Shown here piece by piece: positions 11,186-34,947 of a DNA stretch of 46,432 bases. The notes beneath the pieces are model-generated. The model made no database searches. It was given only the letters and a program-made list of their open reading frames with translations, and was not told where the DNA came from. How positions within the stretch are numbered: the first letter of the stretch is position 1; each line of letters starts with the position of its first letter. The DNA is from a virus. The position numbers and the translations under genes were made by a program. Location: positions 1-46,432 of the IMG/VR virus record IMGVR_UViG_3300044638_008119; one strand, given 5' to 3'.

Positions 11186-12247
11186 CTATTTATTCATGTA
11201 ACTGAGTATCTTTTGTGCTGTATTTGTCCACGATAACTGATTAGCAGTATTTACACCAGCAGGATTAGTATTAATGTGATTATTGACCACATATCGCATA
11301 TAATCGATCAATATGTCTTTTTCAGATTGATCTATTTTTGCCCAATTACCCTGACCCATAAAAGCCTTGCCGTCATGGGCTTTTTCAGTAGTCGATATAT
11401 CGACTAAATATGAGTTGTCTTTATTACAAAACTCTGTATGTGCTGAATAATTAGTAGTTATAACAGGTTTATTCATAGCCATACACTCTAATAACTCCAT
11501 ATTCCAACCCTCTGCTCTTGAGGGGAAAATACCACAATTAGCTTTTGATATTAGTTCTGCAATCTCAGAATGTTGAGCAAACCCCGAAAATAATTTAACT
11601 CTACTATCGTTTTGGTACATATTCTTCCACTGCTCAATTTCAGCAGGAGAGGAGTATCCATTGGTTGTTTCTGAAGCTAAAATCCAAAGTTCAACATCTG
11701 GATTATTTGGAAAAGCTTTGGTAAATAATTCTAATAAAATATCATGACCTTTTCTTACTTCCCACTTGCCTATGTTAATAAATACATACTTATTATCAGA
11801 TGGTTGTGAATATCTAGACTTATCAAATATCGACAAGTCAACGCCAAGCGGAGCAACATGAACTGGAGTTGAAACGTGCTTAGACACTACATCGGCTGCC
11901 CACTGACTAGTTGTAAAAATACCATCTGGAGTTTTTAGGCTATTGATTTCTATATCACTAAAAGTATCTAGTTCAAAAAAGGGAAAAGCAAAATATGGAC
12001 CTCTTCCTACATGCTCTAATAAGTCAAACTGATGCCATATTTTAAGATGAGGAGCATTTATATCGCATAAATATCTTTGTTTAAGAATATTTGATACAAA
12101 GGCGTGATCCTCTTGTGTTTCTACTGATGGCTGACCTATTGGGAAATATGATATAACATTATTGAGAGCGCTAAGACCCTTAATAATATTGTAGGAAGCT
12201 ATGCCATATCCTGTACTGTTGATTGGTGCCGACACATTGATGTTCAT
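11186..12247 (-). CDS. GT-B glycosyltransferase (family 4 type)
   Basis: A 353-residue retaining-type glycosyltransferase with a two-domain GT-B fold. The N-terminus contains a STGYGIASYN loop for acceptor binding. The C-terminal half shows the nucleotide-sugar site: GKWEVRKGHDILL (160-172, family G-R-x-x-x-K-G) and the E-x7-E motif in EGWNMELLECMAM (Glu246 and Glu254). It opens the glycan cluster and overlaps the GMP reductase gene by four bases. Donor and acceptor are not identifiable. It probably acts in the cytoplasm, as no membrane segment is seen. Confidence 0.85.
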   Translation of the reverse strand: MNINVSAPINSTGYGIASYNIIKGLSALNNVISYFPIGQPSVETQEDHAFVSNILKQRYLCDINAPHLKIWHQFDLLEHVGRGPYFAFPFFELDTFSDIEINSLKTPDGIFTTSQWAADVVSKHVSTPVHVAPLGVDLSIFDKSRYSQPSDNKYVFINIGKWEVRKGHDILLELFTKAFPNNPDVELWILASETTNGYSSPAEIEQWKNMYQNDSRVKLFSGFAQHSEIAELISKANCGIFPSRAEGWNMELLECMAMNKPVITTNYSAHTEFCNKDNSYLVDISTTEKAHDGKAFMGQGNWAKIDQSEKDILIDYMRYVVNNHINTNPAGVNTANQLSWTNTAQKILSYMNK

Positions 12248-32878: not shown

Positions 32879-34947
32879 GGGATATAGTTAATTTCTCTTT
32901 GGGCTATAAAATAGTAGGTGGGTTCTGGTGTAGGTTGAGGCGTAGAACTTGGTGGTGGTGTAGAGCTTGGGGTTGCTGCCGGTGTGCTGCTAGATGTTGG
33001 TTCTGGAGTTTGAGTCGGAGTAATACTTGGAGTTGTTGTTATTGTCGGCGTTACGGTAGCAGTTGGTGTTGGGGTTGGAGTTACGCAGCATGATTCAAAG
33101 CAATACGTTCCAGGAAATGATACCCAAGAACTTGGAATATTAGATGGCGAAACAGATGTAGAATCAAAATATGCATCTTGACAATTTGTAAAATGCATAG
33201 CCCTAATTCTAAAAGTTAGAGGCTGATCCGCACTTGTGCAAGTACCGTCTCCACTTTTATTCTCAAAACTATTTAGATAATACTGATAAGATGAAGCGTT
33301 AGGATTAAATATGCAGATATTATCTACTATATCATCAACCGATCCGCTTTGACCATTTGCGTCCAGTGCTTGTATCTGATACCCCTCTATACAGCCTTGA
33401 CTACCTGGTTCAGTATTTCTGTTCCATGTTAAATATATAATTACTTGGTTAGGGCTTTCAGTACCATCCTTTATACATGAACAGGCAGCACTTTGAATAC
33501 TAGGAGTTAATAACTGACAATTATTTGTTGGCGTTGGGGTCGGACTTTGGCTAGGCGGTGGAGTACAACAATTACAATTACTTGTATTTCCCTCAAATGC
33601 CCATACTGGAGGAACATTACATTGACAGGCAGTAGATATTCCAGTTATATTTAATCCTCCAACACAAGAAATATTAGCACTTGCTGTCCATTTATTAGCA
33701 CATGAACTAGAACCAGTATATGCTACACTAGGATCACAAGTAACTGACATAAAGTATGTATCGCCACAAGCCAATGTGCCGCTACTAGTCCAATAATTTG
33801 GCATGACTTTAGTAAATAACAAATCTAGACTTATAGTTCTGGTTATATTGTTACAATTTAATACAAATGTAGTCAAACCATTCCAGTCGCAGCAAGTAGC
33901 TCTACTTGGAGATGGCGTTAATGTCTGAGATGCTGTTAATGAAGGCGTTGGAGTTAGCGTTCTGGTGACTGTTTGGGTTGGTGTTCTTGTTGGAGTAGGA
34001 GTGCAACAACTGCAATTATCAAAATTGCCAACAAAACTCCAAATAGGAGGAGCGTTACATTGACAGGCTTCTTTTATTCCAGTAATTATTAGACCAGTAA
34101 CACAGGATATGGTTAATGAAGAAGTCCATTTATTTATACATGAACCTGATCCTGTGTATCTAGCATTTGGATCACATGTTATCGTAGAACTAAAAGTATC
34201 TCCACATGATAAACTTCCACTAGCTTGCCATGTATTTGCTGCTGTTTTTGTATAGGCTACTGGAATGACTAAATTGCCACAAGAAGCATCAAACTGTAAG
34301 AATGTATTACCGTCCCACTCACAACATGTAACAGTAGATGGGCTTGGAGTATTTGTCGGAGTAGCAGTAATTGTGATAGAAGGAGTAATAGAGGGTGTTA
34401 CTGTAGCAGTAGCAGATCTTGTGATAGTAACTGTTGGGGTTTGGCTTACTGTAATACTTGGTGTTTGCGTTGGTGTTTGCGTAGGTGTTGGTGTCTGTGT
34501 ATTGGTCTGAGTAATACTAGGAGTTAGTGTAGGGGTCGATGTAGCTGTTCGACTATTAGTGGGGGTTGCAGTTGGTGTTCTTGTATTAGTAGGGGTGTTT
34601 GTTCTAGTTGTTGTTATGCTTGGAGTTACGGTAGGGGTTACTGTTCTTGTTAGTGTTCTAGTTGGTGTTCTTGTTGGGGTAACTGTTCTAGTTACAGTAA
34701 TGCTTGGAGTTATTGTAGGGGTAAGTGTTGGTGTCGGTGTTGGCGTTTTTTTAGGGGTTCTAGTTGGTGTTGGAGTTTTAGTAGGTGTCTTAGTAGGCGT
34801 TTTACTAAGGGAATTTCTATCTATAAAAGGACACCCATCATCCGACCCTATCCTTGGAGGTTTTGGAGTTTCTGTTGGTGTTCTGGTTGGTGTTGGAGAT
34901 GGCGGAAGTATTTTCCGCTCATTTTGTCCGTTCATTCTGTTTGTCAT
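32875..34947 (-). CDS. large Thr/Pro-rich fibre or adhesin with duplicated Cys-rich domains
   Basis: A 690-residue modular protein. Residues 47-207 are a mucin-like Thr/Pro/Ser repeat (T-P-T-x-T-P-S types). Two copies of a Cys-rich domain follow (208-315 and 352-461), sharing GDT...TCDP..-YTGS-SC-NKWT...ISCV-GL-ITGI...ACQCN-PP-W. A third domain (476-621) and another Thr/Pro stretch (622-677) come next, with a short end. No signal peptide is seen, and the cysteines may form disulfides outside the cell or bind metal. This fits a long, flexible surface fibre. Low complexity prevents a family call, and the linker is a plausible O-glycan acceptor. Confidence 0.65.
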   Translation of the reverse strand: MTNRMNGQNERKILPPSPTPTRTPTETPKPPRIGSDDGCPFIDRNSLSKTPTKTPTKTPTPTRTPKKTPTPTPTLTPTITPSITVTRTVTPTRTPTRTLTRTVTPTVTPSITTTRTNTPTNTRTPTATPTNSRTATSTPTLTPSITQTNTQTPTPTQTPTQTPSITVSQTPTVTITRSATATVTPSITPSITITATPTNTPSPSTVTCCEWDGNTFLQFDASCGNLVIPVAYTKTAANTWQASGSLSCGDTFSSTITCDPNARYTGSGSCINKWTSSLTISCVTGLIITGIKEACQCNAPPIWSFVGNFDNCSCCTPTPTRTPTQTVTRTLTPTPSLTASQTLTPSPSRATCCDWNGLTTFVLNCNNITRTISLDLLFTKVMPNYWTSSGTLACGDTYFMSVTCDPSVAYTGSSSCANKWTASANISCVGGLNITGISTACQCNVPPVWAFEGNTSNCNCCTPPPSQSPTPTPTNNCQLLTPSIQSAACSCIKDGTESPNQVIIYLTWNRNTEPGSQGCIEGYQIQALDANGQSGSVDDIVDNICIFNPNASSYQYYLNSFENKSGDGTCTSADQPLTFRIRAMHFTNCQDAYFDSTSVSPSNIPSSWVSFPGTYCFESCCVTPTPTPTATVTPTITTTPSITPTQTPEPTSSSTPAATPSSTPPPSSTPQPTPEPTYYFIAQREINYIP
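32917..33084. repeat. Thr/Pro-coding tandem repeat (C-terminal linker)
   Basis: This stretch encodes the second Thr/Pro/Ser-rich linker of the large adhesin. On the plus strand it appears as GGTGT/GTTGG-type short repeats of irregular length. It is coding, not CRISPR-like, since there are no regular spacers. Such repeats can vary in copy number through slippage. Confidence 0.7.
34327..34809. repeat. Thr/Pro-coding degenerate tandem repeat (main linker)
   Basis: About 480 bases encode residues 47-207 of the large adhesin as degenerate ACTCCAAC-type repeats (seen on the plus strand as GTTGGTGT, GTTGGAGT and similar). Units are short and uneven, mixing Thr, Pro, Ser and Arg codons. Length polymorphism between related phages is likely. 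It also gives long spurious reading frames on the plus strand. Confidence 0.75.

What the first reader, a model, noticed from the sequence alone, without database searches (positions are those of the whole stretch)
11186..34947. Phage-encoded glycan assembly set with mucin-like adhesins as possible acceptors
Seen: about ten glycosyltransferases (GT4, GT2, GT9-like, Fringe-like, GT92-like, DTD-type, a two-domain HtrL-like, a PF11397 type and a tandem pair), UDP-galactopyranose mutase, a DegT aminotransferase, two methyltransferases, an ATP-grasp ligase, a HAD phosphatase and an SGNH hydrolase in one divergent cluster. Established: mutase means a galactofuranose donor; PF11397 enzymes can modify hydroxylated Pro or Ser/Thr proteins. 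Inference: no flippase or polymerase is seen, so the product may be made in the cytoplasm on virion proteins. The Thr/Pro-rich linkers at 31719-34947 are natural O-glycan targets. A defined glycan coat on fibres would be novel for most phages. Host surface remodelling or DNA glycosylation are alternatives.
Basis: partly seen in the sequence, partly recalled or inferred. Interest (0 to 1): 0.78.

Follow-up and report, generated by a model that had tools for sequence, protein, structure and literature searches.

The report
Phage mucin-type sugar coat on fibres
This large phage appears to carry its own enzymes for attaching sugars to threonine/proline-rich linkers of its tail and adhesin proteins, much as animals and protists build mucins, and the key enzyme turns up again and again in genomes that have such linkers.

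Summary
The window is a fragment of a T4-like phage; contig G001 (243,821 bp) contains it. The core is a conserved pair. One is the PF11397/GT60 enzyme at 25031-26347, with an invariant DxH motif and a model closest to mucin-initiating polypeptide GalNAc-transferases (Z 22.6; next fold 17.8). The other is the two-domain HtrL-like transferase at 23398-25059. The other glycan genes vary between relatives. Alternating Thr-Pro linkers track GT60: 29 of 32 GT60+ records against 0 of 10 GT60-, and 17 of 21 against 2 of 25 in a second sample. GT60 was gained or lost repeatedly on a RIIA tree. Six UGM-bearing phages without GT60 lack the linkers. Neither G001 nor G003 has an ORF with four or more predicted membrane segments. 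The isolated phage XacN1 has both core genes, such linkers, and at least two reported glycoproteins (PMC5852040). In bacteria, GT60 lies within four genes of Thr-Pro-bearing VgrG, sheath and baseplate proteins of contractile systems. No activity has been measured.

The parts
25031..26347 (+). GT60 / PF11397: proposed initiating polypeptide HexNAc-transferase (core gene)
   Evidence: Pfam E 4.6e-77; D114-S-H116 invariant in 50 sequences; model pLDDT 90.4, top 29 VIA-align rows all ppGalNAc-T
23398..25059 (+). HtrL2: two GT-A domains in tandem, proposed extender or co-initiator (core gene)
   Evidence: HtrL_YibB E 1.9e-14; model 89.6 with two GT-A domains; in 26 of 42 records
32875..34947 (-). 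TP3: 690-aa protein with Thr-Pro linkers between Cys-rich repeats (repeats by eye); proposed acceptor
   Evidence: 248 linker residues, 101 Thr, 58 Pro; no Pfam match
32288..32878 (-). TP2: short N-terminus, Thr-Pro linker, DUF642 domain; proposed acceptor
   Evidence: DUF642 E 3.8e-8; linker 19-42
31719..32291 (-). TP1: short N-terminus, Thr-Pro linker, unknown domain; proposed acceptor
   Evidence: linker 31-53
20228..21328 (-). UDP-galactopyranose mutase (UDP-Galf donor)
   Evidence: GLF E 7.1e-72; solved UGMs E 1.8e-135
11186..12247 (-). GT4 glycosyltransferase, kept in many relatives, also GT60- ones
   Evidence: E 2.4e-15; syntenic in relatives; homologs in all six contigs
14252..15043 (-). 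GT2 glycosyltransferase
   Evidence: E 7.4e-12
14985..16088 (-). DegT/DnrJ/EryC1 aminotransferase (amino-sugar donor, inferred)
   Evidence: E 1.5e-60
16405..16956 (-). methyltransferase-like, weak
   Evidence: E 8.4e-4, below cut-off
16953..17270 (-). HAD phosphatase-like, weak
   Evidence: E 8e-4, below cut-off
17274..18182 (-). ATP-grasp ligase
   Evidence: E 5.9e-14
18182..18835 (-).
   Evidence: none (relevant Pfam)
18835..19473 (-). Fringe-like glycosyltransferase
   Evidence: E 7.8e-7
19470..20231 (-). GT2_4/GT92-like, weak
   Evidence: E 2.3e-4, below cut-off
21325..21981 (-). DTD-type putative glycosyltransferase
   Evidence: no profile match; homologs in other GT60+ islands
26317..26967 (+). 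SGNH/GDSL-like hydrolase, weak
   Evidence: E 0.0053, below cut-off
26976..27716 (+). FkbM methyltransferase, weak
   Evidence: E 1.6e-4, just below cut-off
27698..28573 (+). GT2-like, first of a tandem pair
   Evidence: E 4.2e-5
28564..29334 (+). second of the tandem pair
   Evidence: 30% identical to the first, E 5e-33; no profile match

Best explanation
The island makes a phage-specific O-glycan directly on phage structural proteins in the host cytoplasm. GT60 (25031-26347) starts it by transferring a HexNAc from a UDP-sugar to Thr of the alternating Thr-Pro linkers that join domains of adhesins, fibres and baseplate- or tail-associated proteins. The two-domain HtrL2 protein (23398-25059) adds the next sugar or sugars. 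The variable genes (GT2, Fringe-like, tandem pair, mutase for Galf, DegT aminotransferase, methyltransferases, ATP-grasp) decorate it differently in each phage. Shown here by computation: family, fold, motif, co-occurrence with the linker type, no polytopic membrane protein predicted in the two GT60+ contigs G001 and G003. Inferred: donor sugar, order of steps, that these linkers are modified, that the carriers are in the virion, and the purpose (shielding linkers from proteases, masking, or altering adhesion).
For: Family and fold: PF11397 E 4.6e-77; DxH invariant in 50 rows and in at least 97% of 69 rows including XacN1 and RAS14; DxH marks GT27 and GT60, which share polypeptide Ser/Thr O-glycosylation (PMC7185993, passages); model closest to ppGalNAc-T, Z 22.6-19.5 for ranks 1-29, then 17.8. 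GT60 enzymes start mucin-type glycans on Thr-rich mucins in T. cruzi and Dictyostelium, and T. cruzi cores are extended by Galp or Galf (PMC3769586, PMC8724618, passages). Linkers: TP motif >=5 in 29 of 32 GT60+ and 0 of 10 GT60- records, then 17 of 21 and 2 of 25; Fisher 2e-7 and 5e-7 (not corrected for kinship). Tree of 24 records: 8 changes of GT60, no more clustered than shuffles (7.4); of 6 independent pairs, TP goes the same way in 4 or 5, the other way in 0 (sign test p 0.0625-0.125); on these rows 12 of 15 against 0 of 9, p 3e-4. UGM+ GT60- phages: 0 of 6 with TP. Bacterial collection: 14 Thr/Pro-rich ORFs, all within 4 genes of GT60, 0 of 449 ORFs farther off; among them VgrG, an eCIS sheath and an eCIS baseplate protein. 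XacN1: GT60 48%, HtrL2 43%, 85 TP motifs, TP ORFs beside baseplate wedge and sheath genes, at least two glycoproteins by proteomics (PMC5852040, passage). No ORF with >=4 predicted TM segments in G001 or G003.
Against: No biochemical or mass data. GT60+ records without TP: 3 of 32 (G019, G033, G036; the last two lack HtrL2 and G033 matches only part of the profile) and 4 of 21 (G042, G048, G063, G066; contigs of 64-95 kb). GT60- records with TP: 0 of 10 and 2 of 25. The kinship-corrected pairs do not reach p 0.05. Two of three GT60- contigs read in full carry Thr-rich linkers of another type (poly-Thr), so Thr richness alone does not need GT60; only the alternating type tracks it. HtrL2's second domain has a weak match to a phage DNA glucosyltransferase (phrog_842, E 1e-4) and to TAGT (E 0.047). 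The co-occurrence could come from a shared host type. Virion location of the TP proteins is inferred from domains and neighbourhood. The XacN1 glycoproteins are not identified in the text I could read (supplement not seen). Sequence profiles of GT60 find no ppGalNAc-T among solved chains; the relation shows only in the fold.
Confidence: 0.74

Rival explanations
1. The transferases modify phage DNA (hypermodified, glycosylated bases), protecting it from restriction.
For: HtrL2's second domain weakly matches phrog_842, a beta-glucosyl-HMC-alpha-glucosyltransferase (E 1e-4), and TAGT (E 0.047). Some phages glycosylate DNA (stated in PMC12619734).
Against: No thymidylate synthase/hydroxymethylase profile in the 12 contigs G001-G012; the 2 hits of 14 are in G013 and G014. 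Tet_JBP 0 of 14 (but no positive control rang). GT60 has the fold of polypeptide transferases. The size and variability of the set, plus NeuB and pyruvyl transferase genes in a second island, do not fit one base modification.
Confidence: 0.06
2. The genes remodel the host envelope polysaccharide (receptor masking or superinfection exclusion), using host flippases.
For: Many of the families occur in O-antigen and capsule loci (recalled); phage seroconversion is established (stated in PMC12619734). Host export systems could be borrowed.
Against: PF01943 0 of 14 records while 13 of 14 control genomes ring; no ORF with >=4 TM segments in G001 or G003, so no phage-encoded flippase or polymerase was detected; does not explain the GT60-linker co-occurrence or GT60 near VgrG and sheath genes.
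Confidence: 0.1
3. GT60 and Thr-Pro adhesins travel together only because both belong to an ecotype (shared host), with no enzyme-substrate link.
For: Tail proteins and island genes are both accessory and fast-changing; kinship-corrected pairs reach only p 0.0625.
Against: The same pairing recurs in other lineages (XacN1, RAS14, G013) and, gene by gene, in loci of the bacterial collection within 4 genes; the acceptor composition is what GT60 enzymes are known to use.
Confidence: 0.1

Closest known systems
CAZy GT60 polypeptide alpha-GlcNAc-transferases (T. cruzi TcOGNT-2, Dictyostelium Gnt2 and Skp1 Gnt1)
   Same: PF11397, DxH motif, fold related to GT27; Thr-rich or Hyp acceptors
   Different: Phage gene; no Golgi; no prolyl hydroxylase of PF13640 type found in G001; acceptors are inferred tail or adhesin linkers
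Glycoproteins of Xanthomonas jumbo phage XacN1
   Same: GT60 and HtrL2 homologs, Thr-Pro linkers, at least two glycoproteins reported (PMC5852040, passages)
   Different: Distant lineage; its paper names only two transferases; in the passages read the authors do not link the glycoproteins to linkers
Glycosylated capsids and tails of mycobacteriophages; chlorovirus PBCV-1 capsid glycans
   Same: Virus-encoded transferases acting on virion proteins (as told in PMC12619734 and PMC5852040)
   Different: There the capsid and tail-tube C-termini (or Vp54) are modified, not Thr-Pro linkers; enzymes not compared here
Serine-rich-repeat adhesin glycosylation of Gram-positive bacteria
   Same: Intracellular glycosylation of a low-complexity adhesin before use (PMC7948813, start of abstract in a search listing only)
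   Different: Other enzymes (recalled GtfA/GtfB), accessory Sec export, cell-wall adhesin
Moraphages (PMC12619734, abstract and two sections)
   Same: Large aquatic phages with four core putative glycosyltransferase groups and variable islands
   Different: Membership of this phage was not tested; the paper leaves the target of the enzymes open

Membership tests
GT60 / PF11397 | Profile match over the curated cut-off | tested here: met
   260.3 bits against 21
GT60 / PF11397 | DxH in place of DxD | tested here: met
   D114-S-H116 invariant in 50 rows; motif rule from PMC7185993
GT60 / PF11397 | GT27-like polypeptide-transferase fold | tested here: met
   VIA-align ranks 1-29 all ppGalNAc-T, Z 22.6 to 19.5, next 17.8
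GT60 / PF11397 | Transfers HexNAc to Thr or Hyp of a polypeptide | not testable with these tools
   needs enzyme assay
Skp1-type hydroxyproline glycosylation | Prolyl 4-hydroxylase partner (PF13640) | tested here: not met
   0 in G001; 3 of 14 records overall, 1 over the cut-off
Mucin-type O-glycosylation | Thr/Pro-rich acceptor domains in the same genome | tested here: met
Mucin-type O-glycosylation | O-glycans on those domains | not testable with these tools
   needs mass spectrometry
T-even-like DNA glycosylation | dCMP/dUMP hydroxymethylase (PF00303) | tested here: not met
   0 in G001-G012; controls ring in 9 of 14
T-even-like DNA glycosylation | DNA glucosyltransferase | tested here: inconclusive
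   HtrL2 second domain against phrog_842, E 1e-4, 103 residues
TET/JBP DNA hypermodification | Tet_JBP oxygenase | tested here: inconclusive
   0 of 14, but no control genome rang
Wzx/Wzy surface polysaccharide export | Flippase or polytopic polymerase | tested here: not met
   PF01943 0 of 14; 0 of 323 ORFs in G001 with >=4 TM segments by a simple hydropathy scan
Mycobacteriophage capsid/tail glycosylation | Related transferases | not tested
   -

The most novel reading that the evidence does not exclude
A general pairing rule between initiating transferase and linker type in tail-like machines: GT60 with alternating Thr-Pro linkers, and a second DxH transferase family (288 aa, G008:138382-139248) with poly-Thr linkers, across large phages, with GT60 also near extracellular contractile injection systems and type VI spikes. 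Prokaryotic contractile machines would thus carry mucin-like stalks whose sugars are written by matched cytosolic enzymes. In deduplicated loci (threshold 2 hits), TP-only linkers occur in 29 of 65 GT60 loci and 0 of 56 of the second family, poly-Thr-only in 0 and 11.
Probability: 0.45. Interest if true: 0.9.

Novelty: new variant of a known kind. Interest (0 to 1): 0.8.

Why it matters
Large phages carry many glycosyltransferases of unknown target; PMC12619734 finds four groups in a core set without assigning one. Here a specific enzyme, a specific acceptor sequence and a natural presence/absence contrast make the question directly testable. If true, mucin-type O-glycosylation exists in bacterial viruses and tail-like weapons, done in the cytosol, and glycan shielding of fibres becomes a factor in phage stability, host range and recognition.

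Tried and rejected
Hydroxyproline route (prolyl hydroxylase plus GT60, as for Skp1): rejected for this phage, PF13640 absent in G001. Galf as the defining feature: rejected, UGM does not track the linkers (6 of 6 UGM+ GT60- phages without TP), and of the 34 UGM loci most share little else with the window. Poly-Thr as a universal replacement in GT60- phages: not supported; the DNA motif (>=6 hits) is in 5 of 18 GT60- and 6 of 32 GT60+ of the 50 records searched. Sequence search of GT60 against solved structures gave only one unrelated weak match each time; only the fold showed the relation. Profile comparison of the second DxH family with GT60 aligned the DxH region but with probability 5.8%, and its best solved relatives by sequence are TarP and chondroitin synthase: not claimed as GT60. 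Literature searches (listings seen) showed no paper in the open library that ties GT60 to phage linkers; subscription papers are not held.

Limits of the samples. The search for related loci lists were capped at the best 80 (of 130, 192, 138, 212 and 139). Records for searches were chosen by me from those lists (contigs of 100 kb or more, plus XacN1 and RAS14) before TP was counted; about half came in through the GT60 scan. Those for one search were chosen after the first result was known: shorter contigs, five UGM contigs left over, and 12 named phages picked by me. Several records are near-copies (for example L209/L210, L223/L224, L245/L246, L042/L043). Rows dropped before counts: G012 (RIIA in six broken pieces) from the tree; duplicate loci (80 to 65 and 80 to 56). 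The 60 loci had to hold both flanks within 10 kb of one gene, which favours short islands. L345, and probably others of the 80 loci, are phage contigs binned into bacterial genomes.
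Full report
What the window is. The window is a whole IMG/VR record of 46,432 bases. It carries RIIA/RIIB, clamp loader, endonuclease VII, sigma factor and a head maturation protease, so it is a piece of a T4-like large phage. Identical UGM neighbourhoods lie in four longer contigs. 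The largest, 243,821 bp (G001), was read in pieces; the window's gene at 180-1103 lies there at 117535-118458. Whether G001 is complete is not known.

Inventory. Two predicted transferases have no profile match (18182, 21325). Genes with no evident glycan role sit among them (IMPDH-like, deoxyribosyltransferase-like, phosphatase/macro-like, two proteases, HNH). A second island lies at 94.2-115.9 kb of G001, just outside the window: of its 23 ORFs of 150 aa or more, 19 have no match in G003. It holds NeuB (E 2e-64), pyruvyl transferase, epimerase, GT64, chondroitin-GalNAcT-like, CAP59-like and RgpF-like genes; a GlmS-like gene lies at 223.4 kb (18 island ORFs scanned). GlmS would feed UDP-HexNAc (established pathway, recalled).

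Core and cargo. Relatives keep the backbone around the site, and many have it nearly empty (of 60 loci that hold both flanks within reach, a choice that favours short islands, 7 show a GT60 hit, some of them elsewhere in the locus, and 3 an HtrL2 hit). In the best 80 loci of the GT60 scan (of 138) GT60 is 59-100% identical; 39 HtrL2 homologs are 44-82% identical to the window's, while the flanking transferases differ from phage to phage. XacN1 and Stenotrophomonas phage RAS14 hold both genes. Thus the pair is the constant part and the rest is decoration. A few GT60 loci lack a full HtrL2 homolog in reach (for example L248, L252, L260, L263).

Fold. The GT60 model (pLDDT 90.4) has as its 29 best VIA-align rows (one per entry) polypeptide GalNAc-transferases (Z 22.6 to 19.5), above chondroitin polymerase (17.8) and other GT-A enzymes; Foldseek's first 24 rows are the same family. 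The DxH motif is invariant. The HtrL2 model (pLDDT 89.6) is two GT-A domains: residues 290-553 match B4GALNT1-like chains (Z 15.2), residues 1-273 blood-group-transferase-like chains (Z 13.6). Foldseek's first rows are multi-domain enzymes (LARGE1, LH3, chondroitin polymerase), but across both domains the fit is poor (rmsd 17-22), so the arrangement is not shared.

What GT60 does elsewhere. It starts mucin-type O-glycans on Thr-rich mucins in T. cruzi and Dictyostelium and modifies hydroxyproline of Skp1 (PMC3769586, PMC8724618, PMC6939170; passages). GT27 and GT60 share the DxH motif and polypeptide O-glycosylation (PMC7185993, passages). In T. cruzi the core is extended with Galp or Galf; the window's mutase is a parallel, no more.

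Acceptors. Thr-Pro linkers in G001 lie in TP1-TP3 of the window and in two proteins of the long plus-strand region (45476-49228, 49676-51226) that carry an FGE-sulfatase domain, one also DUF285 repeats. In XacN1, 60 of the 85 motifs lie in the three stretches I read: ORF232-237 (near the clamp loader), ORF325 (next to baseplate wedge ORF324), ORF369, 370 and 372 (next to tail sheath genes ORF367-368) and ORF384. In the window's own locus the TP genes are not conserved: in several GT60+ relatives HNH and volactin are adjacent (L206, L228, L230, L232), so there the linkers lie elsewhere.

Co-occurrence. The pattern ACNCCNACNCCNACN (TPTPT) was counted in whole records. First sample (42 records): at least 5 hits in 29 of 32 GT60+ and in 0 of 10 GT60- (maximum 1); misses G019, G033, G036. 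Second sample (46 records): 17 of 21 and 2 of 25; misses G042, G048, G063, G066; the two exceptions are G049 (6 hits; its contig ends about 530 bases from the gene that borders the island, so the island side is cut off) and Caulobacter phage Seuss (5 hits). G044 counts as GT60+ on a 49-residue frame only. HtrL2 was found in 26 of the 42; 25 of those 26 have at least 5 hits, against 4 of 16 without it. Several records are near-copies, so the Fisher values (2e-7, 5e-7) overstate certainty.

Kinship. RIIA was found in 25 of 40 contigs; 24 gave a tree. On it GT60 changes at least 8 times, as often as shuffled labels (mean 7.4). Among 6 independent pairs on well-supported branches linkers go the same way in 4 or 5, the other way in 0 (sign test p 0.0625-0.125). 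Close pairs are telling: G009 and G011, both 97% identical to the window in RIIA, have 0 and 47 motifs. One gene tree near the island may itself be affected by recombination.

Specificity. Six UGM-bearing phages without GT60 (G014, G070-G074) have no motif. Of three GT60- contigs read in full, two (G008, G010) have poly-Thr linkers, PTTTTTTTTAAP-like, and one (G009) has neither type. Poly-Thr phages G006, G008 and G040 hold another DxH transferase and G010 an 83% homolog of it; a fifth, G046 with 6 motifs, is not in that list (best 80 of 139). In deduplicated loci, at a threshold of 2 hits, GT60 neighbourhoods have TP-only in 29, poly-Thr-only in 0, both in 3 and neither in 33 of 65; neighbourhoods of the other enzyme have TP in 0, poly-Thr in 11 and neither in 45 of 56. 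Over whole records poly-Thr alone does not separate GT60+ from GT60- (6 of 32 against 5 of 18).

Bacteria. Among the best 80 (of 212) GT60 loci in the genome collection, 14 Thr/Pro-rich ORFs (at least 20 of 30 residues) were found in 13 loci, all within four genes of GT60; none among 449 ORFs farther off (p 2e-4). Three were checked against solved structures: VgrG with a Thr-Pro tail, an eCIS tail sheath with a Thr-Pro insert, an eCIS baseplate protein. The others were only read by eye or not at all. Jiulongibacter sediminis, an isolate, has GT60, HtrL2 and a Thr-Pro protein together.

Against the rivals. Flippase PF01943 0 of 14 records while 13 of 14 control genomes ring. No ORF with four or more predicted membrane segments in G001, G003 or G008, one each in G009, G010 and G011, none with six; the predictor is a simple hydropathy scan. 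No hydroxymethylase-type enzyme in G001-G012. TET was not found, but the test had no working control. A weak similarity of HtrL2's second domain to a DNA glucosyltransferase remains.

Published lead. The XacN1 authors report at least two glycoproteins by proteomics and suggest phage-encoded transferases (PMC5852040, passages; supplement not seen). The moraphage paper finds four core putative transferase groups and discusses DNA, serotype and virion targets without deciding (PMC12619734, outline and sections 12 and 13).

Verdict. The enzyme activity, the sugar and the modified sites are all still to be shown.

Noticed in passing
G001 94240-115933 (outside the window, left of it): A second glycan island with NeuB, pyruvyl transferase, epimerase and several eukaryote-like transferase families; 19 of 23 ORFs of 150 aa or more have no match in G003.
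   Followed up: partly
G008:138382-139248 (L460:1882-2748): A different DxH-type GT2-like transferase found in phages with poly-Thr linkers.
   Followed up: partly
L367, L390, L392 (bacterial loci): GT60 homologs within four genes of VgrG, eCIS sheath and eCIS baseplate genes whose proteins carry Thr/Pro-rich tails or inserts.
   Followed up: partly
34951-35952: Actin-like protein of the Volactin family (E 6e-66), present in many relatives.
   Followed up: no
29714-31401: A subtilase and a trypsin-like protease next to the Thr-Pro genes; one or both are often kept where the island is empty.
   Followed up: no
12244-14102: IMPDH/GMP-reductase-like and weak deoxyribosyltransferase-like genes border the island in many relatives (the latter 72-100% identical in the best 80 loci).
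   Followed up: no
L024 / G012: Record with RIIA and GT60 broken by several stops; sequencing errors or decay.
   Followed up: no
L345: Phage-like contig (backbone and island genes of this clade) filed under an Alphaproteobacteria genome bin.
   Followed up: no
31719-32878: By eye, TP1 and TP2 share an N-terminal motif (NCCPVxTQKPLSS) before the linker, then differ, like interchangeable heads on one stalk.
   Followed up: no
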